This document shows positions 6,730-19,430 of a stretch of 35,702 bases of DNA, one piece after another. The first letter of the stretch is position 1. Each line of letters begins with the position of its first letter. Source of the stretch: an uncultured Eubacteriales bacterium (GTDB lineage: Bacteria; Bacillota; Clostridia; Lachnospirales; Lachnospiraceae). The stretch covers positions 75,296 through 110,997 of the forward strand of contig CASDTX010000035.1 in NCBI GenBank assembly GCA_949283695.1, read 5' to 3'. The translations under genes and the position numbers were made by a program. The notes under the pieces are model-generated. The model was given only the letters and a program-made list of their open reading frames with translations. It had not been told where the DNA came from and did no database searches.

Positions 6730-9324
6730 ATGAAAGAGAGCTTTTGTTTTACAGTAAACGGAATAGAACGTGTTACAGATGTGGATAAGCCGCTCCTTCG
6801 CTATCTGCGGGATGATCTTCATCTGCATTCAGTCAAGGACGGCTGCAGTGAGGGCGCCTGCGGGACGTGTACCATCGTGGTGGACGGAAAAGCAGTGAAA
6901 TCCTGTGTCCTGACAACGAAGCGGGCAGTGGGGAAAAATATCCTCACAACGGAAGGGCTCAGTGAGAAAGAGAAAGAAGCCTTTGTCTATGCCTTTGGAT
7001 CTAAGGGGTCCGTGCAGTGCGGATTCTGTATTCCCGGAATGGTGATGGCAGGCAAGGCTCTGATTGACCGGGTGCCGGATCCCACAGAGGAAGAGATCAA
7101 AGTGGCATTGAAAGGAAATATCTGCCGCTGTACCGGATATAAGAAAATCATTGAAGGAATCCAGCTTGCGGCGGCGATCCTGCGGGGGGACGCGCAGATC
7201 GATGAGGAACTTGAGAAAGGCGACAGCTACGGCGTGGGCAAGCGCGCATTCCGCCTGGATGTGCGTGAGAAGGTGCTGGGATACGGAGAGTATCCGGACG
7301 ACGTAGAGATGGAAGGCATGGTCTATGTCTCAGCGGTGCGGTCCAAATATCCACGGGCCCGCATCCTTGATATCCATGCCGAGAAGGCAGAAGCACTCCC
7401 GGGTGTTCTGGCAGTGCTGACTGCGGAGGATGTGCCCAACAACAAGGTGGGACATCTGCAGCAGGACTGGGACGTCATGATCGCCAAGGGTGATATCACG
7501 CGCTGCGTGGGCGACGCGATCTGTCTTGTGGTGGCGGAGACAAGAGAGATTCTGGAGAAAGCGAAGAAGCTGGTCCGCATCGACTATGAGGAGTTGAAGC
7601 CTGTGACTTCGATCAAAGAGGCCATGCAGGAGGATGCGCCTAAGGTGCATTCCAAGGGAAACTTATGCCAGAGCCGGCATGTCACAAGAGGGGACGCCAA
7701 GACCGCGCTGGCAAATTCTAAATATGTAGTGACACAGTCCTACCGTACGCCATTTACAGAGCATGCCTTCCTGGAGCCGGAATGTGCGGTGGCCATGCCA
7801 TATAAGGATGGGGTGAAAGTCTATTCCACAGATCAGGGCGTGTACGATACCCGCCATGAGATCGCCATCATGTTTGGGTGGGATCAGGATCGGATTGTCG
7901 TAGAGAATAAACTGGTGGGCGGCGGTTTCGGCGGCAAGGAGGATGTCTCCACCCAGCATATCGCGGCGCTTGCGGCAGTGAAGCTGCAGAGACCGGTGAA
8001 AGTGACATTTTCCAGACAGGAATCCATCAACTTCCATCCGAAACGTCATGCCATGGAGGGGACATTTACCCTGGGATGTGACGAAAACGGAATCTTCACC
8101 GGACTGGACTGCGAGATCTATTTTGATACGGGGGCGTATGCTTCTCTGTGCGGACCGGTCCTGGAACGGGCGTGTACGCATTCCGTGGGCCCCTACTGTT
8201 ATCAGAATACGGACATCCGCGGTTTCGGATATTATACGAATAATCCGCCGGCGGGAGCGTTCCGCGGGTTCGGCGTGTGCCAGAGCGAGTTTGCCCTGGA
8301 ATCCAACATCAACCTTCTGGCGGAGAAGGTGGGCATCTCTCCATGGGAGATCCGCTACCGCAATGCCATTGAGCCGGGCAAGGTGCTGCCCAACGGGCAG
8401 ATCGCGGACTGCTCCACCGCGCTGAAGGAGACGCTGCTGGCGGTGAAGGATGCCTATGAGAGCAATCCGGGCAGGGCTGGGATCGCCTGTGCCATGAAGA
8501 ACGCGGGAGTCGGCGTGGGGCTTCCGGACAAAGGAAGGGCAAAGATCGTCGTACATAACGGCAAGGTGGAATTATACAGTGCGGCGTCGGATATCGGACA
8601 GGGCTGTGCAACGGTATTTGTACAGATGGTAGCCGAAACCACAGGGCTCGGAAGAGATAAGATCCGCAATATGGGAGCAAACTCTGAGGTGGCTCCGGAC
8701 TCCGGAACCACATCCGGTTCCCGCCAGACGCTGATCACCGGCGAGGCGGTGCGCATGGCGTCTGCTGACCTGGCGGAAGCGCTGAAGGAAGCAGGCGGAG
8801 ATCTGGAGAAGCTGGAGGGATGGGAGACATTCGCGGAATTCTTTGATCCCACGGACAAGCTGGGCGCGGATGTGCCGTATCCCAAGAGTCATGTGGCTTA
8901 TGGATTTGCCACACATGTTGTGATTCTGGATGATGACGGCAGGGTGAAAGAAGTCTATGCAGCTCATGATTCCGGCAAGGTGGTCAACCCCATCTCTATC
9001 CAGGGCCAGATCGAAGGCGGCGTGCTCATGGGACTGGGGTATGCATTGACGGAGGATTTCCCGCTGAAAGACTCTGTGCCCCAGGCAAGATACGGAACTT
9101 TGGGACTGATGCGGTCCACGCAAATCCCGGATATTCATGCCATCTATGTGGAAAAGGAGGAGCTTCTGCCTTTCGCATACGGCGCGAAGGGGATCGGGGA
9201 GATCGCGACGATTCCGACCGCTCCGGCCGCGCAGGGTGCATACTACGCGATGGATCATGTGCTGAGGACCAGGCTTCCGATGGAGGATACCTATTATTCC
9301 AGAAAGCAGAGAGCCGTGAAATAG
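6730..9324 (+). CDS. xdh: Selenium-dependent xanthine dehydrogenase, fused [2Fe-2S] and molybdopterin subunits
   Basis: An 864-residue molybdenum hydroxylase. The N-terminal 160 residues bind two [2Fe-2S] clusters: C39, C44, C47 and C59 in the plant-ferredoxin-like fold, then C97, C100, C132 and C134 in CGFC and CRC. The rest is the molybdopterin domain with GGGFGGKED, AFRGFGVCQSE and, near the C-terminus, GAKGIGE whose glutamate (E824) fits the catalytic base of the xanthine oxidase family. No FAD domain lies between the two, unlike the classical enzyme, so electrons probably leave through the adjacent polyferredoxin and YgfK. The neighbouring yqeB/yqeC genes mark it as the selenium-dependent type, in which labile selenium is a ligand of molybdenum rather than selenocysteine; no in-frame TGA is present. 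Substrate (xanthine, purine or another heterocycle) is uncertain. Confidence 0.92.
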   Translation: MKESFCFTVNGIERVTDVDKPLLRYLRDDLHLHSVKDGCSEGACGTCTIVVDGKAVKSCVLTTKRAVGKNILTTEGLSEKEKEAFVYAFGSKGSVQCGFCIPGMVMAGKALIDRVPDPTEEEIKVALKGNICRCTGYKKIIEGIQLAAAILRGDAQIDEELEKGDSYGVGKRAFRLDVREKVLGYGEYPDDVEMEGMVYVSAVRSKYPRARILDIHAEKAEALPGVLAVLTAEDVPNNKVGHLQQDWDVMIAKGDITRCVGDAICLVVAETREILEKAKKLVRIDYEELKPVTSIKEAMQEDAPKVHSKGNLCQSRHVTRGDAKTALANSKYVVTQSYRTPFTEHAFLEPECAVAMPYKDGVKVYSTDQGVYDTRHEIAIMFGWDQDRIVVENKLVGGGFGGKEDVSTQHIAALAAVKLQRPVKVTFSRQESINFHPKRHAMEGTFTLGCDENGIFTGLDCEIYFDTGAYASLCGPVLERACTHSVGPYCYQNTDIRGFGYYTNNPPAGAFRGFGVCQSEFALESNINLLAEKVGISPWEIRYRNAIEPGKVLPNGQIADCSTALKETLLAVKDAYESNPGRAGIACAMKNAGVGVGLPDKGRAKIVVHNGKVELYSAASDIGQGCATVFVQMVAETTGLGRDKIRNMGANSEVAPDSGTTSGSRQTLITGEAVRMASADLAEALKEAGGDLEKLEGWETFAEFFDPTDKLGADVPYPKSHVAYGFATHVVILDDDGRVKEVYAAHDSGKVVNPISIQGQIEGGVLMGLGYALTEDFPLKDSVPQARYGTLGLMRSTQIPDIHAIYVEKEELLPFAYGAKGIGEIATIPTAPAAQGAYYAMDHVLRTRLPMEDTYYSRKQRAVK

Positions 9325-9350
9325 CCAGACGGCGAAAGCATGTAAATCAT

Positions 9351-9407
9351 ATCCCCGATGCCGGCATACGAGGCATCAAATCAGCGGCGATGCAGGCATC
9401 GGGGGAT
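9351..9407 (+). promoter_or_regulatory. Two-tier hairpin between xdh and the ModE-like gene
   Basis: ATCCCCGATGCC (9351-9362) pairs with GGCATCGGGGGAT (9395-9407) with one bulged G. Inside, GCATC (9373-9377) pairs with GATGC (9389-9393). No T-run follows. It occupies the 154-bp gap after xdh and may be a processing site, an attenuator or a barrier between the catabolic and molybdate-transport halves of the cluster. Confidence 0.5.
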
Positions 9408-9478
9408 CAGATACGCGCGGCAGACCTACATTCCGTTTCGGTCGGTACGCGCTGGAATCAAGAAACGAGGTGAGGCAG

Positions 9479-9862
9479 ATGGAACGGCAGACAGAGGACA
9501 GAACAGACAGCAGCAGGGGAACGGCTTCTTCCATCCGCCCGCGTCTGAAAGTGCAGATCGAGGGAACGGAGCCCTTCTTCGGGCCGGGCGTGCGCAAGCT
9601 TCTTCTGTATATTCAATCCGAGGGATCCGTGCGGGAAGCCTGTGTGAAGATGGGACTGTCCTACAGCAAAGGCAGGAGGCTTCTTGACCGGGCGGAGAGA
9701 GAACTGGGATACCGGATCGTTGAGCGCAGTCCCGGCGGAAAGAACGGCGGAGGCGCCCATGTCAGCGAGGCAGGACTGCAGCTTCTGGAGAAATACGAGA
9801 GACTGGAAAGAGAATTGACAGAGGAGGCGGAGGAGAAGTTCCGGGAGATATTTGAACACTGA
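9479..9862 (+). CDS. ModE N-terminal-type (LysR-like winged-helix) molybdate-responsive regulator, no molbindin domain
   Basis: A 127-residue protein with the ModE/LysR-type winged helix: FFGPGVRKLLLYIQSEGSVREACVKMGLSYSKGRRLLDRAERELG, followed by the wing segment (VERSPGGKNGGGAHVSEAG) and an acidic helix. E. coli ModE has two further molybdate-binding (molbindin/TOBE) domains that are absent here, so either another protein senses molybdate or this short form does so differently. ATG 9479 is used because GAGGTGAGG lies just upstream; an in-frame GTG at 9470 overlaps that site. It is directly upstream of modABC and probably controls it through the palindrome at 9909-9932. Confidence 0.85.
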   Translation: MERQTEDRTDSSRGTASSIRPRLKVQIEGTEPFFGPGVRKLLLYIQSEGSVREACVKMGLSYSKGRRLLDRAERELGYRIVERSPGGKNGGGAHVSEAGLQLLEKYERLERELTEEAEEKFREIFEH

Positions 9863-9908
9863 ACAGGAACATTGCGGATGCTGAATGCATCTGCATTTAT
9901 CAGAAAAG

Positions 9909-9940
9909 CGATTGCTTTTCAAAAAGCAATCGAGTATAAT
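9909..9940 (+). promoter_or_regulatory. modA promoter with a 24-bp operator-like palindrome
   Basis: TTGCTT (9912-9917) and TATAAT (9935-9940) are separated by 17 bases, a near-ideal sigma-A promoter. Perfect 11-bp inverted repeats CGATTGCTTTT (9909-9919) and AAAAGCAATCG (9922-9932), two bases apart, cover the -35 box and nearly all the spacer. A protein bound there would block polymerase. The ModE-like gene ends 46 bases upstream, making it the obvious candidate repressor; that link is inferred. Confidence 0.75.
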
Positions 9941-10006
9941 CTATGGTAGATGCGGCGCCGGCTGCTCATGGTATACCGGCACCGGGCAATAAAGGAGGAC
10001 AAACGT

Positions 10007-10897
10007 ATGAAGAAAAGGTTATTAGCAGCAATTTTAGCAGGAGTGATGGTATTTTCCATGGCAGGATGTTCGGGAGGAAACGACGAGCCGGCAGCGGATG
10101 ATAATACAGATGCTCAGGAGGAAGAAGCAGGTTCTGATGAGGAGGAGACAGAGATTCAGGTGTTTATCGCGGCGAGCCTGAACACGGTTATGACAGAACT
10201 TGCAGAGAAATATAATGAAGAGCACCCGAACGTGAAGATTACCTACAATGCGGACAGTTCAGGAACGCTTCTGACACAGATCCAGGAAGGATATGAGTGT
10301 GATATCTTCTTCTCCGCAGCACAGAAGCAGATGGACGACCTGGAGGCAGACGGTCTCATGGTAGAAGGTACAAGGGCCAATGTAGTCAACAATCAGGTGG
10401 TTGTCGTTACGCTGAAAGACAGCGGGACAGCAGTGACGGGTCTTGAAGATATCGGAAACGCGGAGAGCATCGCTCTGGCAGGCGGCAGTGTTCCGGTAGG
10501 AAAGTACACGAGACAGGCGCTGGTGAATCTGGGAATGCTTCCTGAGACGGACGATGTAGCGGCCATTACAACGCAGGAAATCACAGAAGCACTGGGCGGC
10601 GTAGAGATCAGCGAGCAGGATAACGTGAGCAAGGTGCTTGCGGCAGTTGTAGAGGGCTCCTGTGAAGTAGGAACAACTTACTATTCCGATACATACGGAT
10701 ATGAGGATGATCTGGATATTCTTCAGACGGTAAGCTATGATCTGACAGGAAACGTGATCTACCCGATCGCCCGTGTTGTGAACGAGGAAGCGGATGATGC
10801 GCAGACCGCTGCTGCAGAAGATTTCCTGAAATTTATCCTCTCCGATGAGGCGAAAGAAGTATTTGCTTCCTACTACTTCGATACAAATGTAGAATAA
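10007..10897 (+). CDS. modA: Molybdate ABC transporter substrate-binding lipoprotein ModA
   Basis: A 296-residue periplasmic-type binding protein. A signal peptide (MKKRLLAAILAGVMVFSMAG) ends in a lipobox with cysteine, so the protein is a membrane-anchored lipoprotein. A low-complexity acidic linker follows, then the ModA core: VFIAASLNTVMTELAEKY, YNADSSGTLLTQI, DIFFSAAQKQMDDL, and further on VPVGKYTRQAL and VGTTYYSDTY. ATG 10007 is chosen because AGGAGG (9993-9998) lies eight bases upstream and the signal peptide starts there; the frame is open further upstream. It is the first gene of the modABC unit, driven by the promoter at 9912-9940. Confidence 0.93.
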   Translation: MKKRLLAAILAGVMVFSMAGCSGGNDEPAADDNTDAQEEEAGSDEEETEIQVFIAASLNTVMTELAEKYNEEHPNVKITYNADSSGTLLTQIQEGYECDIFFSAAQKQMDDLEADGLMVEGTRANVVNNQVVVVTLKDSGTAVTGLEDIGNAESIALAGGSVPVGKYTRQALVNLGMLPETDDVAAITTQEITEALGGVEISEQDNVSKVLAAVVEGSCEVGTTYYSDTYGYEDDLDILQTVSYDLTGNVIYPIARVVNEEADDAQTAAAEDFLKFILSDEAKEVFASYYFDTNVE

Positions 10898-10942
10898 GAT
10901 ACAAACGCAGAATAAAGATAAGAGAAATGTAAGGCAGCAGGC

Positions 10943-10980
10943 GGCGGACAAGAGCCAGACTTTTGTCCGCCGTCTCTTTT
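10943..10980 (+). terminator. Weak terminator/attenuator between modA and modB
   Basis: GGCGGACAA (10943-10951) pairs with TTGTCCGCC (10963-10971), followed by GTCTCTTTT. Its position inside an operon suggests partial termination that makes ModA more abundant than the membrane components, as is usual for binding proteins. Confidence 0.6.
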
Positions 10981-11027
10981 GAGAAAAAACAGGATGAGGA
11001 AACCTGATTCAGGAGGAACATTTATTT

Positions 11028-11732
11028 ATGGAAGAGATCATGGAGATTTTAAAAGAGCTGGACTGGAGTCCGCTGTTCATATCCCTCAAAACAGGAGTGG
11101 TGGCGACTTTTGTTTCCTTTTTCCTCGGGATATTCGCGGCGCGTAAGGTGGTGAAAGCTTCCCCGGGGAAGAAGGCGGTGATTGACGGCATCCTCACGCT
11201 GCCGATGGTACTGCCCCCCACAGTAGCAGGTTTCTTCCTGCTCCTTCTGTTCAGCAGGCGCAGGCCGTTCGGAGAATTCCTTTTTGAAGAGTTCGGGTTC
11301 AAGGTGGTGCAGACATGGCTTGGATGTATCATTGCGGCGACGGTGATTGCATTTCCGCTGATGTACCGCAACGCCCGTGCGGCAATGGAGCAGATCGATA
11401 CGAATCTGGTCTATGCAGGGCGCACCCTTGGGATGTCGGATACAATGATTTTCTGGAAGATCATCGTGCCGACTGCGGGACCGGGGATCGCTTCCGGTAC
11501 GATCCTGACATTTGCCAGAGCGCTGGGCGAGTACGGCGCCACGTCCATGCTGGCGGGAAATATCCCCGGCAAGACGGGAACCATCTCTCAGAAGATCGCC
11601 ATGGTCATACAGGACGGCGATTATCTGACGGCCGGGATCTGGGTGGCAGTCGTCATGGTCATTGCTTTCGCTGTCATTTTCCTGATGAATATTATCTCAG
11701 GAAAGAAGATGAAGAACATCGGGAGGTGGTAG
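11028..11732 (+). CDS. modB: Molybdate ABC transporter permease ModB
   Basis: A 234-residue inner-membrane permease with about five to six hydrophobic segments. The binding-protein-dependent transport (EAA-type) loop is visible as MEQIDTNLVYAGRTLGMSDTMIFWKIIVPTAGPGI, and the ModB-typical RALGEYGATSMLAGNIPGKT follows. AGGAGG at 11011-11016 precedes ATG 11028; a second in-frame ATG lies at 11040. The stop is three bases before modC, so the two are coupled. Confidence 0.93.
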   Translation: MEEIMEILKELDWSPLFISLKTGVVATFVSFFLGIFAARKVVKASPGKKAVIDGILTLPMVLPPTVAGFFLLLLFSRRRPFGEFLFEEFGFKVVQTWLGCIIAATVIAFPLMYRNARAAMEQIDTNLVYAGRTLGMSDTMIFWKIIVPTAGPGIASGTILTFARALGEYGATSMLAGNIPGKTGTISQKIAMVIQDGDYLTAGIWVAVVMVIAFAVIFLMNIISGKKMKNIGRW

Positions 11733-11735
11733 GAC

Positions 11736-12827
11736 ATGGCGATCAATGTACAGATCAAGAAGAAGCTGGACAGCTTCCTTCTGGATATCAGTTTTCAGAG
11801 TCAGTCAAAGAGGATCGGGATTCTGGGCGCTTCCGGGTGCGGAAAGAGTATGACGCTGAAGAGCATTGCAGGGATCGAGACACCGGACACGGGGAAGATC
11901 GAAGTAGAAGGACGCACGCTTTTCGACCGGGAGGCAAGAGTAAACCTAAAGCCGCAGAAGCGGAATGTAGGTTATCTGTTTCAGAATTATGCCCTGTTCC
12001 CTACCATGAGCGTGGAGAAGAATATTGCAGCCGGGCTCAAAGGCAGCCGGCAGGAAAATGAAAAGCGTGTGCTGGAGATGGTCGAGAAATTCCAGCTCTC
12101 AGGACTGGAGAAACGGCTTCCCGGCCAGCTGTCGGGCGGACAGCAGCAGAGGGTGGCTCTGGCGCGTATCATGGCCTATGAGCCGGATGTGATCCTTCTT
12201 GACGAGCCGTTCTCGGCTTTGGACATGTACTTGAAGGATCAGCTTCAGCAGGAACTGATCCAGATGCTGGAGGATTATGAGGGGACGGTAATTATGGTGT
12301 CTCACAACCGGGACGAGGTATACCGGTTCAGTGAAGAGCTGCTCATCATCGACCAGGGACGGATCGCTGTTTCCGGCGAGACGAAGGAACTCTTCCGGAA
12401 TCCGGTGAGCAAAGAGGCGGCACGTCTGACCGGGTGTAAGAACTTCTCCCGGGCGAGGAAGATTGACGCACATACATTGGAGGCAGAAGACTGGGGCATC
12501 ACCCTCCATATCCGGGGAGAGATCCCGGGATATACAGAGTGGATCGGATATCGTGCCCATGATTTTGTCCCGGTGTGGGGAGAACGCGGAGAGAATATGC
12601 TCAAAGCAGAGGTAGAGAGCAGCGCGGTCCTTCCGTTTGAGAAGAATTATTATCTCAGGCCGGAAGGGAAGAGACAGAAAGGAGAAGACAGATCTGTCGT
12701 GCCGGGCCAGGGGAGCAGGCAGAACATCTGCTGGTTCGTGCAGAGAGAGAAACTGGAGATGCTGGAAGCGCGTGGGCTTCCGGATTATCTGGAACTAAAA
12801 GAAGAAAGTCTGCTCTTTCTTCGTTAA
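11736..12827 (+). CDS. modC: Molybdate ABC transporter ATP-binding protein ModC
   Basis: A 363-residue ATPase. Walker A GASGCGKS is at residues 31-38, the Q-loop at LFQNYALFP, the ABC signature LSGGQQQ at 132-138, Walker B VILLDEP near 153-158 and the switch histidine in VSHNRDEVYRF. The C-terminal third is a TOBE-like regulatory extension (from about residue 285), as in ModC and other metal-oxyanion importers. The gene follows modB with three intervening bases and GGGAGGTGG overlapping the end of modB. It is the last gene of the molybdenum block. Confidence 0.92.
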   Translation: MAINVQIKKKLDSFLLDISFQSQSKRIGILGASGCGKSMTLKSIAGIETPDTGKIEVEGRTLFDREARVNLKPQKRNVGYLFQNYALFPTMSVEKNIAAGLKGSRQENEKRVLEMVEKFQLSGLEKRLPGQLSGGQQQRVALARIMAYEPDVILLDEPFSALDMYLKDQLQQELIQMLEDYEGTVIMVSHNRDEVYRFSEELLIIDQGRIAVSGETKELFRNPVSKEAARLTGCKNFSRARKIDAHTLEAEDWGITLHIRGEIPGYTEWIGYRAHDFVPVWGERGENMLKAEVESSAVLPFEKNYYLRPEGKRQKGEDRSVVPGQGSRQNICWFVQREKLEMLEARGLPDYLELKEESLLFLR

Positions 12828-14933: not shown

Positions 14934-15728
14934 TCACTGCGCAGCCTTTGCTGCAAATTCTGTTGTCACAAGATCATCATAGGGCACCCGCTCTTCCAAT
15001 TCGCCGGCGCTTTCCAGAATATCCTGCAGGAGATCAAAACTGCTTTCCTCAAAGATCAGATTGCTCTTCCAGGTATCCTGATCATAATAACGGGTGACAA
15101 TCGTTGTGATTGTCTGAAGATCTGTCTCCGGGAACTGAGGCTCGATGACGGAAGCGATCTCTTCCGGTGTGTGTGTCTGGACATAATCCATGCCCTTCTG
15201 AAGGGCGTTGGTAAATCCCTGGATGATATCCGGATTCTCATCGATATAGCTCTGTTTCGCGCTGAACGCGGTGTAAGGCACATATCCGCTGTCTTCCCCC
15301 AGAGACGCCACGACATAGCCCTTGCCCTCCGATTCCAGCGTTGTCGCGCCGGGCTCAAACTCCACTGTGAAATCTCCCTGATTCTCCGCAAATGCGGCAG
15401 CGGTGGACCCAAAGTCGATATTCTGATTGATTTCAAGATCTGTCTCAGGATCGATTCCGTTTTCCTTCAAAATATATTCAAAAACCATTTCCGGCATGCC
15501 GCCTTTCCGGCCGCCGAGTACCAGATGACCTTTCAGATCTTCCCATTCAAAGTCCGGCATTTCCTCTCTTGCAACAAGGAAGTTGCCTGCTCTTTGTGTA
15601 AGCTGAGCGAAGTTGACCACATAGTCAGTAGCACCTTCGGCGTAAGTGTAGATGGATGCCTCGGACCCCATGAATCCGATATCCGCCTCGCCGGAGAGCA
15701 CAGCAGTCATTGTTTTGTCGGCTCCAAA
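14934..15728 (-). pseudogene. ABC transporter substrate-binding protein (SsuA/NMT1/THI5-like), C-terminal part of a split gene
   Basis: About 264 codons of an alkanesulfonate/thiamine-precursor-type binding protein, beginning FGADKTMTAVLSGEADIGFMGSEASIYTYAEGA and running to the natural stop at 14934. The N-terminal part (signal peptide, lipobox and first lobe) lies at 19170-19430, beyond the inserted element. Joining base 19170 to base 15728 on the minus strand gives exactly 352 codons including the stop, and reads GFGADKTM without a break. The frame continues into the element at 15729-15794, but those residues are element DNA and unrelated to the family. No permease or ATPase gene is adjacent, so it was an orphan binding protein. 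While the element is inserted this part lacks its start and export signal. Confidence 0.9.
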
Positions 15729-15753
15729 CGGAGTCTGAAGGTCAGGCAGAGAC
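15702..15753. other. attL of the inserted element
   Basis: Left junction. Bases up to 15726 are transporter gene, 15727-15728 (AA) are the inferred crossover dinucleotide, and 15729-15753 are the right half of the reconstructed attP. CGGCTCC at 15719-15725 recurs at 19160-19166. Confidence 0.8.
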
Positions 15754-15771
15754 GTCCTTTGTCCGCCGGCG

Positions 15772-17163
15772 CTAAAGAAAGTCAATAAAATCAATGGTAC
15801 TGTCAGGCTTCAGGTGGATCTGGCGGATTGTATTCCGCCAGAACGCCCGCCGGTTCTCAGGACTGAGCAGGCGGTAGGCGGCACGGAAATTTCCCTGCAG
15901 GGCAGAGATCAGAGCGGAATCATCCGGATCCGGGGCGGCTGTCTCCTCCGGGAGCTGCAGTTTCTCTTGTTCCAGCAAGCGGGATTGCTCGTTATAATAG
16001 TTCCATGTGATCCGGCCTTTCTGAAAGAGAAGATTGAGCCGATCCAGTTCCTGGCTGATCTGGGCTGCCGAACGTGCTGCGGGCTTTTTTTTCTGCACTT
16101 TTTGGATCGTGCTGACATGGAGCCGGCAGGATGGAAATTCTTGTTCAAGAAGGTCAAGCAGATCGTGTTCTATCAGATTCTGGCTCACTTTATGCGTATT
16201 CGTGCAGAGCTGGTCAACGAGTGCGCGGCCGCAGCGGTAGTAGCAGTAATCCCGTTTCTCCTGAGTCTTCCGGTTGATGACGGACTTACAGCCGGTGCCG
16301 GTCAGAAGCCGGCCGCAGGAAGGACAGCGGATCATTCCTGAGAAATAGTAGACACGGCCGGATGGGGTCTGCCGGATATTCTGCCGGCTGATCTGCTGCA
16401 GTCTTGCCCAGCGTTCTTCTGACACATAGGGCGGACAGTAGGGGATCCCCCGGTATGTGCCCTTGTAGAATTCGCTGGACAGCATAGTCCGCAGAACCCC
16501 ATAAGAGAAGCCGGGATCGTAATTGCGCTGGATATAGCGGACGGTTTCCTGCTTGTTCTGGTGGGTTTCAAAATAATCATAAAAGGCGTTTACCAGTTCT
16601 TCCTGATCCGGGTCCTTCACCATACATTTCCTCCCATTTATGATCCCCACTTTATATCCCCGCGGCATGTTGGCGTCTCCGAAGATCACTTTGCCCTGAC
16701 GGACAGAGGCCTCATTGACGAATCGGATTCGCTCCGAAGTGGTGTCTACCTCGTTCTGGCCGATGGACAAGACCACGTTGAGCTGAAGTCTGCCGTCCCG
16801 TGTGTCCATGGTGAGGCCGGGTTCGGATGCCGAGATCCAGGAGACGCCGTACATATCGAGGATGTCCTGAACCTTATAGAAATCCGACATATTGCGGAAC
16901 CAGCGGTCCAGGCGCCAGAAGAGGATCACATCGATCTTCCCGGCTTTCACATCTTCCAGAAGTGCATGGATCGCTTTTCGTTTCTTTAGTTCTTTGCGGG
17001 CAGTCTTTCCTTCGTCGGCATAGACTCCTACCGGGGTCATGCCGTGCTCCTCTGCATAGCATGCAAGATATTCTTTCTGAGCTTCAAGGGATTTGCCGTG
17101 CATCATCTGTTCTGATGTACTTACGCGGATATAGATCGCGCAGCGTTTGCGTTTGTCAGACAT
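15772..17163 (-). CDS. Large serine recombinase (phage-type integrase)
   Basis: A 463-residue serine integrase. The catalytic domain opens CAIYIRVSTSEQ with nucleophile S15, then DVILFWRLDRWFRN with the conserved D-R-x-x-R-type helix. The recombinase domain follows (PRGYKVGIINGRKCMVKDPDQEELV). Next is a zinc ribbon, with CPSCG as its first cysteine pair and YCYYRCG further on, then a coiled-coil-like C-terminal stretch. ATG 17163 is used because GGAG lies eight bases upstream; an in-frame TTG at 17178 is less likely. The stop is 19 bases from the attP half-site at 15729-15753, typical for an integrase next to its own att site. All expected domains are present, so it is probably active. Confidence 0.93.
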   Translation of the reverse strand: MSDKRKRCAIYIRVSTSEQMMHGKSLEAQKEYLACYAEEHGMTPVGVYADEGKTARKELKKRKAIHALLEDVKAGKIDVILFWRLDRWFRNMSDFYKVQDILDMYGVSWISASEPGLTMDTRDGRLQLNVVLSIGQNEVDTTSERIRFVNEASVRQGKVIFGDANMPRGYKVGIINGRKCMVKDPDQEELVNAFYDYFETHQNKQETVRYIQRNYDPGFSYGVLRTMLSSEFYKGTYRGIPYCPPYVSEERWARLQQISRQNIRQTPSGRVYYFSGMIRCPSCGRLLTGTGCKSVINRKTQEKRDYCYYRCGRALVDQLCTNTHKVSQNLIEHDLLDLLEQEFPSCRLHVSTIQKVQKKKPAARSAAQISQELDRLNLLFQKGRITWNYYNEQSRLLEQEKLQLPEETAAPDPDDSALISALQGNFRAAYRLLSPENRRAFWRNTIRQIHLKPDSTIDFIDFL

Positions 17164-17237
17164 CCCATCATCTCCCAAGGCGTTTGTATGAAAAGCAGGG
17201 CGAAAATTGCAGCTCTGCCGATCTGTCTCACCTCCGC

Positions 17238-17324
17238 TTACACGGACTTCTCAATCGTATATTCAATGGTCACTTCTTCCTGTTCTTCCAGAAGCTTGAT
17301 CAAAATGTCCAGGATCGTTTCCAT
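17238..17324 (-). CDS. Possible 28-residue small protein upstream of the integrase
   Basis: ATG at 17324, stop at 17238, encoding a short acidic amphipathic peptide (METILDILIKLLEEQEEVTI...). A GGGGTGAT site lies about twelve bases upstream. It is co-directional with the integrase gene and ends 75 bases before it. No family recognised. A small protein next to a serine integrase could be a directionality factor, but nothing in the sequence proves this, and the ORF is short enough to be chance. Confidence 0.35.
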   Translation of the reverse strand: METILDILIKLLEEQEEVTIEYTIEKSV

Positions 17325-17388
17325 GTTCAAAGAGATCACCCCGTCATATACCTATGCGCTTTGGTTTGTCCGGGTTTCCATTATCCTG

Positions 17389-17422
17389 TGCAGATTTTCC
17401 GGCAATCTGCATATTCTATAAG
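17389..17422. promoter_or_regulatory. Palindrome and possible promoter between integrase and lysis genes
   Basis: Perfect 8-bp arms TGCAGATT (17389-17396) and AATCTGCA (17404-17411) flank a 7-base centre. On the plus strand TATAAG (17417-17422) could be a -10 box with its -35 region inside the palindrome. On the minus strand a GATAAT box lies just beyond it. A repressor bound here could control both directions. The promoters are weak matches. Confidence 0.4.
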
Positions 17423-17492
17423 TAGATCCCTCTCTTTATCAACTGTGTGCCCATGTGAAGAGAGGAGAAGATTTCAGAAAGAGAGTGGAGCA

Positions 17493-17654
17493 ATGCAGAC
17501 AGTGATTGTTGGGGGAATCTCGTTTTTTATCGGAGTATTTGCCGGGATCGTGATTATTTCTCTGATGGCGGCATCCAGAGACCGGGACGATATGGAGCGG
17601 AGAATACACGAGGAGATACGTTCAGCCGGAACGGGAGAGGAGAAGCGCAATTAG
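17493..17654 (+). CDS. Small single-pass membrane protein (DUF3789-like)
   Basis: A 53-residue protein with one N-terminal hydrophobic helix (VGGISFFIGVFAGIVIISLMAA) and a charged tail (SRDRDDMERRIHEEI). The layout of one helix with small residues followed by an R/D/E-rich tail resembles the small DUF3789-type proteins found beside phage holins. ATG 17493 follows a purine-rich GAGAGTGGAGCA. It lies 14 bases upstream of the holin gene and is probably part of the lysis operon, perhaps modulating the holin. The family call is tentative. Confidence 0.6.
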   Translation: MQTVIVGGISFFIGVFAGIVIISLMAASRDRDDMERRIHEEIRSAGTGEEKRN

Positions 17655-17668
17655 ATGGAGGGAGTATC

Positions 17669-17962
17669 ATGGAGCAGATTATGAATTATGTGAAGCCGGA
17701 ACTGATTGCAGTGGCGGCTGTGCTGTATTTCGCAGGAGCCGGGCTGAAAAGGGCACAGGCTGTACAGGATAAATATATACCATTGATACTGGGAGCGGGT
17801 GGGGTTATGATCTGTGCAGTCTGGGTAGTGGCAACGTGCCCGCTGGATTCTGGACAGCATATCGCAATGGCTGTCTTTACCGCGGTTGTACAGGGAATAT
17901 TAGTCGCAGGCCTGAGCACGTACGTGAATCAGATTGTGAAACAGATGCAAAAGAAGGAATAG
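17669..17962 (+). CDS. Phage holin (Phage_holin_5_2-like)
   Basis: A 97-residue protein with three hydrophobic stretches and a short positively charged C-terminus (VKQMQKKE). The N-terminal pattern MNYVKPELIAVAAVLYFAGAGLKRAQAVQDKYIPLILG matches a widespread Clostridial phage holin family. Holins form membrane lesions that release or activate the endolysin. It is preceded by GGAGGGAG and followed by the endolysin gene, the usual phage order. Confidence 0.85.
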   Translation: MEQIMNYVKPELIAVAAVLYFAGAGLKRAQAVQDKYIPLILGAGGVMICAVWVVATCPLDSGQHIAMAVFTAVVQGILVAGLSTYVNQIVKQMQKKE

Positions 17963-17969
17963 TGTTAGC

Positions 17970-18003
17970 GTACAAAGGGCAATACGGCGTGCTGCCCTTG
18001 TAC
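17970..18003 (+). other. Hairpin between holin and endolysin genes
   Basis: GTACAAAGGGCA (17970-17981) pairs with TGCCCTTGTAC (17993-18003) with one bulge. No T-run follows. It may tune endolysin expression or mRNA stability. Confidence 0.45.
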
Positions 18004-18040
18004 ACTGACGTTAGCCAAAATGGCAGAAAGGAGAGTGAGT

Positions 18041-19129
18041 ATGGCAATATTACGAGTGATAGATGCAGCGTCTCATCAAGGAGAGATGAATCAGAGCGCA
18101 ATGGAATTTGACGCGCTGATTGTGAAGGCGACAGAGGGAACAACCTATGTAAATCCCTATTGTGACGGAGAGTTTCAGAAGGCACTGAAGCTAGGGAAGA
18201 AACTGGGCATATATCATTTCGCACGGAATGCAAGCGGAAATACGGCAGATGCGGAGGCGAATTTTTTTATTCAAAATACGCGAGGATATATCGGGAAAGC
18301 GATCCCTGTGCTTGACTGGGAGGACAGCGATCAATCGGATGTGGCCTGGGCGCTTCAATGGCTGCAGCTGGTCGAGAAGGCGTATGGATGCAAACCGCTG
18401 ATCTATATGTCCGAATCCGTGGTCAACAGCTACGACTGGTCAAAGGCGGCGGCAGGCAATTATGGCCTGTGGTGCGCGAAATACGCGGATTACGTGCCGG
18501 ACTATAACTGGGATATGGCTGGGGCGGGTGCCGCTCCGTCAGTAAAATGGTGGTCCACAGTGGCATTATGGCAGTGGACCTCTGTGGGACGGCTGAACGG
18601 CCACAGCGGAAACCTGGATTGTTCTGTATTTTATGGAGATGGAGCCGCCTGGGATAAGTATGTGGGCGGATCCGGACAGCAGGGCGGAACAGCGCCTGTG
18701 CCGTCCAACCCGGCGGCAGACAGCGGGCCGGCCGGATCTGTGTTGGATCTGGTATATCATACGATGAAGGGAACTTACGGTGACGGGGAGACCCGGCGAA
18801 AGAAACTGGGATCTCGGTATGAGGAGGTGCAGGGTGTAATTGATCATATTGCTTCGGCGCCGGTGGAGACACTGGCGGCGGAAACCTTACAGGGGACTTA
18901 TGGAAATGGAACGATCCGAGAGACTGTGCTGGGTTCGAAATACGATGCGGTACAGCGACGAATTAATGACAGCCAGTCCGGCGGAACAGGGTATTATACC
19001 GTGCAGTCCGGGGATACCCTGTCCGGTATCGGTTCGAAACTGGGTGTAAACTGGCAGCGTATCGCTGCGGCGAATGGGATCGGCAGTCCCTACACAATCT
19101 ATCCGGGGCAGAGACTCCGGGTGAAGTAG
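18041..19129 (+). CDS. Phage endolysin: GH25 muramidase with two Cpl-7-type repeats and a LysM domain
   Basis: A 362-residue peptidoglycan hydrolase without a signal peptide, as expected for a holin-dependent lysin. Residues 1 to about 200 form a GH25 lysozyme: VIDAASHQG at the N-terminus, the catalytic D-x-E pair in VLDWED (D92, E94), YGLWCAKYADY and LWQWTSVGRLNGHSGNLDCSVF. Two cell-wall-binding repeats of the CW_7/Cpl-7 type follow (TMKGTYGDGETRRKKLG and TLQGTYGNGTIRETVLG). The last ~45 residues are a LysM domain (YYTVQSGDTLSGIGSKLGV). ATG 18041 has AGGAG seven bases upstream and is preferred to ATG 18020. The stop is 14 bases before the attR arm, so the gene marks the right end of the element. 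Confidence 0.92.
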   Translation: MAILRVIDAASHQGEMNQSAMEFDALIVKATEGTTYVNPYCDGEFQKALKLGKKLGIYHFARNASGNTADAEANFFIQNTRGYIGKAIPVLDWEDSDQSDVAWALQWLQLVEKAYGCKPLIYMSESVVNSYDWSKAAAGNYGLWCAKYADYVPDYNWDMAGAGAAPSVKWWSTVALWQWTSVGRLNGHSGNLDCSVFYGDGAAWDKYVGGSGQQGGTAPVPSNPAADSGPAGSVLDLVYHTMKGTYGDGETRRKKLGSRYEEVQGVIDHIASAPVETLAAETLQGTYGNGTIRETVLGSKYDAVQRRINDSQSGGTGYYTVQSGDTLSGIGSKLGVNWQRIAAANGIGSPYTIYPGQRLRVK

Positions 19130-19142
19130 GAAGCACTGCAGT

Positions 19143-19194
19143 GTCTTTGCCTGGCCTGCCGGCTCCGAATCCGCACACAAGGTCCAGATTAATT
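19143..19194. other. attR of the inserted element
   Basis: Right junction. Bases 19143-19167 are the left half of the reconstructed attP, 19168-19169 (AA) are the inferred crossover dinucleotide, and the transporter gene resumes at 19170. Base G19167 differs from A15726 in attL; with the G, the attP centre reads CTCCG-AA-CGGAG, a perfect palindrome. Confidence 0.8.
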
Positions 19195-19430
19195 CCTTCT
19201 TCCTCGAAGTAACCCTCTTCAATAGCAGCGTACATCGGCGCATAAAATATTGAGTGCGCGACTTCGTTTAATGTGACTTTCACAGGTTCCTTTTCCTCTG
19301 CGGGAGCTGCCTGTTCGATGGCGGTTTCCCCGCTGTCTTTCGATGTGCTCTCAGGATCTGCGGAGCATCCGGCAAGCAGGGAAAGAGAGAACGCGGCACA
19401 GACCAGGCAGGATAAAAAACGCTTTTTCAT
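19170..19430 (-). pseudogene. ABC transporter substrate-binding lipoprotein, N-terminal part of the split gene
   Basis: Begins at ATG 19430 with GGAGGACATT upstream. It encodes a signal peptide MKKRFLSCLVCAAFSLSLLAG with a lipobox cysteine, an acidic linker, and the first lobe start VTLNEVAHSIFYAPMYAAIEEGYFEEEGINLDLVCG. At 19169 the frame passes into element DNA and loses family similarity (RPGKDTAVLPTS...). The natural continuation is at 15728 and below. In the present arrangement a truncated lipoprotein of about 90 native residues plus a foreign tail could still be made. Confidence 0.9.

What the first reader, a model, noticed from the sequence alone, without database searches (positions are those of the whole stretch)
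14934..19430. A 3.44-kb element splits a transporter gene and its removal restores the frame exactly
The N-terminal part (19430 down to 19170) and C-terminal part (15728 down to 14934) of one SsuA/NMT1-like lipoprotein flank a serine-integrase element. Joined, they give 352 codons including the stop, reading GFGADKTM across the junction. The host gene therefore can be switched between an off (inserted) and on (excised) state with no scar, as in active lysogeny (comK prophages, the skin element). The promoter and signal peptide stay on the far side of the element.
Basis: partly seen in the sequence, partly recalled or inferred. Interest (0 to 1): 0.8.

Follow-up and report, generated by a model that had tools for sequence, protein, structure and literature searches.

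The report
Shrunken prophage splitting a transporter gene
A 3.4-kb leftover of a bacterial virus sits inside a transporter gene of a gut bacterium and still carries its cutting enzyme and cutting sites, so it may still be able to jump out and repair the gene, but this has not been shown.

Summary
A 3,441-bp element splits a solute-binding lipoprotein gene of a Mediterraneibacter (gut Lachnospiraceae). Closing the gap gives an open 351-residue protein, and I read the gene as intact in 36 of 58 same-genus genomes. The element is an internally deleted, rearranged prophage. It keeps a serine integrase, both attachment sites, a tiny early phage gene ("SMALL", 28 aa) and a holin-endolysin cassette. 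Full-size prophages with this integrase family use the same site; one (G017) resembles RG-TP1, a phage recorded as antibiotic-induced. The gene is a hot spot: 17 of 58 genus genomes are split, at three positions. A second mini-element (2.97 kb, Candidatus Dorea gallistercoris) has the same int-SMALL-holin-endolysin content with unrelated lysis genes. SMALL is my candidate excision factor: of 26 viral contigs with SMALL, 19 hold this integrase family, one holds a tyrosine integrase instead, and six showed neither. That the element is a reversible on/off switch (active lysogeny) is possible but not shown: no empty site is in the assembly, and selection evidence is mixed.

The parts
19170..19430 (-). 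N-terminal part of the split solute-binding lipoprotein gene (signal peptide and lipobox by eye, first 87 codons)
   Evidence: PF09084; orthologues
14934..15728 (-). C-terminal part of the same gene, 264 codons plus stop, open
   Evidence: PF09084/PF13379; 81-96% identical to nine relatives
19144..19193 (-). attL (host N-part arm + phage arm), inferred crossover TT at 19169-19168
15703..15752 (-). attR (phage arm + host C-part arm), inferred crossover TT at 15728-15727; the two phage arms form an imperfect inverted repeat, 17 of 22 positions
15772..17163 (-). large serine integrase, 463 aa, intact frame
   Evidence: PF00239 3e-27, PF13408 1e-7, PHROG 95 2e-95; 61-76% identical to the integrases next to the same gene in relatives
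17191..17233 (.). first rearrangement junction: homology to the int end of relatives stops at about 17190, homology to an early-region piece (inverted relative to int) starts at 17234
17238..17324 (-). SMALL, 28-aa acidic ORF (ATG start; TTG at 17330 also possible); homologue of RG-TP1 gp52; candidate recombination directionality factor
17413..17442 (-). promoter-like TTGATA-18-TAGAAT ahead of SMALL and int (consensus match only)
   Evidence: 2 sites found in the stretch, shuffles mean 0.8, sd 0.8
17379..17644 (.). second rearrangement junction region, between early-region and lysis-module homology
17493..17654 (+). 53-aa ORF, hydrophobic near its start by eye, no confident family
   Evidence: no Pfam hit; PHROG hits weak, best E 0.0047
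17669..17962 (+). holin, 97 aa
   Evidence: PF16079 3e-27, PHROG 1129; 82% identical to the holin at the N-part end of the G019 and G069 elements
18020..19129 (+). endolysin, 369 aa: GH25 + CW_7 repeats + LysM, intact frame
   Evidence: PF01183 5e-34, PF08230, PF01476, PHROG 291

Best explanation
The element is a shrunken, rearranged prophage. Its ancestor was a temperate phage that used a large serine integrase to insert into a conserved attB inside a solute-binding protein gene, as a family of Lachnospiraceae phages does (shown by comparison). The phage interior was lost, leaving the integrase end, one inverted early-region piece carrying SMALL, and the lysis end (shown by comparison; order of events inferred). 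In the inserted state the gene is off: the N-part runs into phage sequence and the C-part lacks promoter and signal peptide (read from sequence). Integrase and both attachment sites look intact, so attL x attR excision would restore the gene precisely if a directionality factor is made. SMALL, an early gene mostly found with this integrase family and retained beside int here, is the likeliest such factor (inferred). I put present excision competence at a little under even, and see no demonstrated regulatory role. The confidence below is for the shrunken-prophage account.
For: Relatives with 61-76% identical integrases hold large elements at the same site: G017 35.0 kb, G019 18.3 kb. G017's element carries a terminase (PF03237, 47.5 bits) and 22.7 kb of the 39 kb stretch aligns to RG-TP1 at 72-10,039-base pieces of 80-95% identity. 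Window 17234-17378 is 72-78% identical to an early-region piece about 3-4 kb from int in G018, G019 and L183; 17645-17952 is 78% identical to the lysis end of G019 and G069. RG-TP1, recorded as antibiotic-induced from M. gnavus, has a 61% identical integrase, SMALL as gp52, and a joined attP whose left arm equals the attR phage arm of G017 over the 32 bases printed. Window attP symmetry 17 of 22. No PF03237 match in the window's assembly; the search rang in 6 of 14 control genomes.
Against: The assembly is a 79%-complete draft, so other phage genes could be missing and a chimeric join cannot be excluded. It holds one copy of the site and no empty copy. Excision competence and the role of SMALL are untested. 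SMALL is not exclusive to this integrase family: one of 26 SMALL contigs carries a tyrosine integrase and no match to this integrase. At 28 aa it would be very small for such a factor (recalled). In the window SMALL points towards int, unlike in the phages; constant co-expression of a true excision factor should eject and lose the element.
Confidence: 0.82

Rival explanations
1. Active lysogeny or a domesticated switch: the mini-element is kept because programmed excision turns the transporter gene back on, with int as recombinase and SMALL as trigger.
For: Integrase, SMALL, holin, endolysin and both gene halves are open; attachment sites are well formed. Low terminal dN/dS of the window's C-part (S 60, N 11, 0.053). 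A second mini-element in another genus has int + SMALL + holin + endolysin with unrelated lysis genes. Int and SMALL are also about 0.2 kb apart in G075, whose contig ends soon after.
Against: No excised form seen. The split group has higher dN/dS (0.123 against 0.080; 57 of 5,000 shuffles). G654 is interrupted a second time. Other elements break the same gene at two more positions, so its loss seems tolerated. Nothing links excision to a condition.
Confidence: 0.13
2. Dead remnant: same phage origin, but excision no longer happens and the transporter gene is a pseudogene whose halves have not had time to decay. (Shares the origin of the best explanation; differs on present competence.)
For: Most of the phage is gone and at least two joins and an inversion have occurred. 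Other collapsed copies include a 1.9-kb one in G654 with a shortened integrase ORF. Group-level relaxation of split genes.
Against: Every ORF of the element and both gene halves are open, and the attP arms are symmetric.
Confidence: 0.42
3. Assembly chimera: a normal prophage whose pieces were wrongly joined in a draft assembly.
For: 66-contig draft; the early piece is inverted relative to int, as a misjoin could give.
Against: A similar mini-element with unrelated lysis genes exists in an independent draft genome; no terminase found in the rest of the assembly, with a model that does detect G017's terminase.
Confidence: 0.08

Closest known systems
Ruminococcus phage RG-TP1 (PQ571303) and related site-1 prophages of Lachnospiraceae
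   Same: Integrase family (61% to RG-TP1, up to 76% to prophages), attP type with central TT, SMALL gene, lysis genes at the end next to attP; same attB position for the prophages
   Different: The window element has lost replication, regulation, packaging, head and tail genes; SMALL is inverted and next to int. RG-TP1's own attB was not in the record
dusA-associated genomic islands (PMC4482086; outline and abstract seen)
   Same: Diverse elements share one conserved protein-coding gene as target; the integrase is the common feature
   Different: Those use tyrosine-family integrases at the 5' end of dusA; here serine integrases split a transporter gene at three positions
skin(Cd) element in sigK of Clostridioides difficile (PMC5025042; passages seen)
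   Same: Prophage-like serine-recombinase element inside a gene whose excision restores it; a separate acidic protein is the directionality factor there
   Different: Other host gene; programmed excision is shown there and not here; SMALL is only a candidate
comK prophages of Listeria (active lysogeny; recalled, no paper on it opened)
   Same: Prophage in a coding gene with precise restoration
   Different: Here almost no phage genes remain and no reversible excision is known
fdxN element recombinase XisF (NCBIfam NF041201)
   Same: Best NCBIfam hit of the integrase (108.6 bits)
   Different: Far below the curated cut-off of 375 bits

Membership tests
Site-1 (RG-TP1-like) serine-integrase prophage | Large serine integrase of PHROG 95 type with resolvase and zinc-ribbon domains | tested here: met
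   the Recombinase domain PF07508 scored 20.2 bits, just under its cut-off of 21.1
Site-1 (RG-TP1-like) serine-integrase prophage | Attachment at the same attB with symmetric attP arms around TT | tested here: met
Site-1 (RG-TP1-like) serine-integrase prophage | Packaging and structural genes | tested here: not met
   none among the element's ORFs scanned; no PF03237 in the assembly. It is a remnant, not a complete prophage
Active lysogeny / phage regulatory switch | Insertion inside a host gene with precise restoration on excision | tested here: met
   in silico only
Active lysogeny / phage regulatory switch | Reversible or programmed excision in living cells | not testable with these tools
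   no reads or cultures; no empty-site copy in the assembly
Active lysogeny / phage regulatory switch | Host gene kept under selection although split | tested here: inconclusive
   window 0.053, split group 0.123, comparison set 0.080
skin / sigK intervening element | Insertion in sigK | tested here: not met
   host gene is an NMT1/SsuA-like binding protein (SsuA_fam 77.7 bits, under its cut-off of 163.5)
skin / sigK intervening element | Dedicated directionality factor | tested here: inconclusive
   SMALL is a candidate by association only, and not exclusive to this integrase family
Phage satellite (PICI-like) | Replication, packaging-interference or terminase small-subunit genes (features recalled) | tested here: not met
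   only int, SMALL, a 53-aa ORF, holin and endolysin recognised
XisF-type developmental recombinase | Score over the NCBIfam NF041201 cut-off | tested here: not met
   108.6 against 375 bits

The most novel reading that the evidence does not exclude
Lachnospiraceae repeatedly domesticate phages at one transporter gene into mini-elements made of an integrase, a 28-49-aa excision factor (among the smallest for a serine integrase; recalled) and a lysis cassette, which excise to switch the transporter gene on.
Probability: 0.1. Interest if true: 0.82.

Novelty: new member of a known kind. Interest (0 to 1): 0.5.

Why it matters
It names a single conserved gene as a shared docking site for at least three serine-integrase types in a major gut family. 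It supplies matched integrase, attP and attB sequences, and points to a very small conserved phage gene as a testable excision factor. If the mini-elements still excise, they would be a minimal model for phage-derived gene switches in gut commensals.

Tried and rejected
Taking the 7-bp GGAGCCG repeat as crossover core: rejected, because in G019 and G017 the attL/attR shared runs are only GTTTGG and ATTTGG, and attP symmetry centres on TT. Phage satellite and skin membership: rejected (membership table). fdxN-type recombinase: rejected on score. Source of the endolysin: the IMG/VR scan matched none of the patterns used; in the genus the nearest (72-73%) lie in G010 and G067 beside a ClpB-like gene, away from any phage-like neighbour by eye, so its source is open. 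Pfam or PHROG family for SMALL: none in the copies scanned. dN/dS: species-level branches are long, so recent loss of function cannot be told from continued use. Literature: seven searches listed no paper that I recognised as describing this gene as an integration site. Of the listed papers four were opened (PMC10072058, PMC3783163, PMC5025042: passages; PMC4482086: outline and abstract). PMC10072058 describes other R. gnavus temperate phages with a tyrosine integrase and, for the clone described, an intergenic attB. The open-licence library excludes most subscription journals, so absence is weak evidence.
Full report
WHAT IS THERE. The window lies in contig C35 of a 2.9-Mb, 66-contig, 79%-complete draft genome. 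Named relatives place it with Mediterraneibacter, family Lachnospiraceae; no call named the species of the window itself. A binding-protein gene is cut in two: codons 1-87 at 19430..19170 and 264 codons plus stop at 15728..14934, both on the - strand. Between them a 3,441-bp element carries an intact 463-aa serine integrase (-), a 28-aa ORF here called SMALL (-), a 53-aa ORF (+), a holin (+) and a GH25/CW_7/LysM endolysin (+). Closing the gap gives 351 residues plus a stop.

IS IT ONE GENE. In 58 same-genus genomes searched with an intact orthologue I read 36 as intact (G066 counted here although it also has a second, split copy), 17 as split, and 5 as undecided or without a match (G008, G011, G015, G021, G076: contig ends, a probable frameshift, or no hit). 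Split at site 1, as in the window: 10 (G000, G017, G018, G019, G022, G023, G036, G063, G069, G075). Site 2, near residue 163: 4 (G001, G034, G064, G073). Site 3, near residue 207: 3 (G010, G030, G031). G073 is broken at both site 2 and site 3. Among 80 named loci, 9 of 79 classifiable ones are split at site 1, with titles including Mediterraneibacter, Dorea, Sellimonas, Lachnospiraceae and unclassified Clostridia (L172 starts at a contig end and was dropped).

WHAT OCCUPIES SITE 1. I resolved both ends of six elements; sizes between crossover points: window 3,441; L130, Candidatus Dorea gallistercoris, 2,969; G584 4,445; G654 1,900; G019 18,255; G017 35,048. Others run off contigs or fetched stretches. 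G017's element has a Terminase_6N match, and 22.7 kb of its 39-kb stretch aligns to phage RG-TP1 in pieces of 80-95% identity. In G019 and G069 the holin, 82% identical to the window's, lies at the N-part end, as in the window. In G683, G530, G584 and L186 the integrase lies on the N-part side instead. The integrase was found at E <= 1e-100 in 8 of 58 genus genomes, 11 of 397 family genomes and 2 of 392 order genomes, the window's included each time. A pattern scan of IMG/VR found it in eight contigs, and more came with the SMALL scan. Not every site-1 break has its integrase in hand: G036 shows only the N-part end, and G023's contig stops 31 residues into the integrase.

A PHAGE THAT MOVES. 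RG-TP1 (PQ571303, 36,030 bp) is recorded with source 'antibiotic induction', host M. gnavus. Its integrase is 61% identical to the window's, its gp52 is a SMALL homologue, and beside the integrase it has a joined attP, GCCCCA-tt-TGGAGC, whose left arm equals the attR phage arm of G017 over the 32 bases printed. This is the best evidence here that the integrase family excises precisely at this point. The record does not show RG-TP1's own attB.

ATTACHMENT SITES. With the crossover at TT, the window's attP arms agree at 17 of 22 positions, RG-TP1's at 16 of 22; 20,000 random window positions had a mean of 5.5 and a maximum of 15. The attB arms scored only 5 of 22 in the same ungapped test. Serine integrase sites are 40-50 bp long around a central dinucleotide, and excision needs a directionality factor (PMC3783163, passages).

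HOW IT SHRANK. Window DNA up to 17190 matches the integrase end of site-1 elements. 17234-17378 matches a piece of their early region about 3-4 kb from int, and is inverted in the window. 17645-17952 matches the lysis end. So at least two joins and one inversion separate the window from its relatives. No PF03237 terminase is found in the assembly; the model rang in 6 of 14 control genomes and detects G017's terminase. The missing fifth of the genome limits this.

A SECOND MINI-ELEMENT. L130 holds, within 2,969 bp, an Amidase_3 endolysin, an r1t-type holin, SMALL and the integrase. Its lysis genes belong to other families than the window's and its SMALL points the other way relative to int, so the two probably shrank separately; exchange of lysis genes after one shrinkage is not excluded. 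The two ends of a phage survive any single interior deletion, so int and lysis genes are expected. SMALL is not at an end; its survival in both is the notable part. In G075 SMALL lies 0.2 kb from int, but the contig ends soon after. G584 keeps int, a repressor-like gene, an Ltp-type lipoprotein, DUF2442 (just under cut-off), DUF4160 and SMALL; no lysis gene was recognised among the ORFs scanned. G654 keeps a 418-aa integrase ORF and no SMALL match.

SMALL. A pattern scan of IMG/VR found 26 contigs with SMALL. In 19 this integrase family lies in the fetched DNA: 18 at about 60% identity or more (two as fragments), L234 at 35%. Whole-record searches of the other seven found no match to this integrase; one (L217's record, 44 kb) has a tyrosine integrase, and six showed neither type. 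IMG/VR records may be fragments: in L210, L211, L215, L217 and L225 SMALL lies within about 3 kb of a record end, in L224 and L228 3.4 and 6.3 kb. So of 20 contigs with an integrase found, 19 have this family; the pairing is strong but not exclusive. The site-2 and site-3 stretches examined (L007, L009, L096-L101) gave no SMALL match. Among 50,697 phage records only RG-TP1 and one 4.8-kb fragment matched gp52. SMALL is acidic in five of six copies computed (pI 4.05-4.56; G584 7.94); CD1234 and SprB, both directionality factors, are described as acidic (PMC5025042, passages). This makes SMALL a reasonable candidate, no more. A promoter-like site lies ahead of SMALL-int; the same scan found none on the + strand between 17180 and 17700, so the lysis genes may be silent.

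SELECTION. On a tree of 101 C-part sequences (17 split at site 1; 84 others, which include the unclassified L172 and the undecided G008), all 17 split copies are open. By parsimony the window's terminal branch has S 60, N 11, ratio 0.053. Split copies together give 0.123, the others 0.080; 57 of 5,000 label shuffles reach the split value. The highest values are G720 0.321, G584 0.243 and G017 0.197; lineage and branch length are not controlled for. For the window this fits a recent insertion or continued use; for the group it speaks, weakly, against general upkeep of the split gene.

OTHER SITES. Site 2 in G001 and G034 holds elements with a 649-aa large serine recombinase (PF00239, PF07508, PF13408) beside the C-part and mostly non-phage cargo by eye. 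Site 3 in G010 holds a roughly 39-kb insert with a 466-aa serine integrase, 36% identical to the window's. One gene thus receives at least three integrase types.

VERDICT. The best account is a shrunken prophage with working-looking recombination parts. The hot spot and the two mini-elements with matching content are the interesting findings; the on/off switch remains a hypothesis.

Noticed in passing
G001, G034, G064, G073 (site 2) and G010, G030, G031, G066, G073 (site 3); loci L092-L101: The same transporter gene is interrupted at two further positions; where examined (G001, G034, G010) by other serine-recombinase elements. G073 is broken at both.
   Followed up: partly
L130:7031-10000: A 2.97-kb mini-element in Candidatus Dorea gallistercoris with the same kind of gene content as the window's but unrelated holin and endolysin.
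   Followed up: yes
L207:241-4686: A 4.4-kb site-1 element with integrase on the N-part side, an Ltp-type surface lipoprotein (PF07553), DUF2442, DUF4160 and a repressor-like gene: possible phage-exclusion or toxin-antitoxin cargo.
   Followed up: partly
L244:6969-7925 and L245:6362-7303: GH25 lysozyme genes about 72% identical to the element's endolysin, at the same place in two relatives near a ClpB-like gene and no phage-like neighbour by eye; the frame stops before the LysM part.
   Followed up: partly
L183:5651-5878, L214:22-249, L209:1022-1261: In three site-1 elements the downstream gene part ends near the site-2 position, hinting at double insertions (contig end in L214).
   Followed up: no
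record of L217 (IMG/VR 2600255140_000005): A 44-kb phage record with a SMALL homologue but a tyrosine integrase, the one clear exception to the SMALL-serine integrase pairing.
   Followed up: partly
G014, G026, G066: Two copies of the transporter gene in one draft genome; strain mixture or real duplication.
   Followed up: no
window 6730-12827: Molybdopterin oxidoreductase (xanthine dehydrogenase type) followed by an ABC transporter with an SBP_bac_11 binding protein, perhaps for molybdate; ordinary.
   Followed up: no
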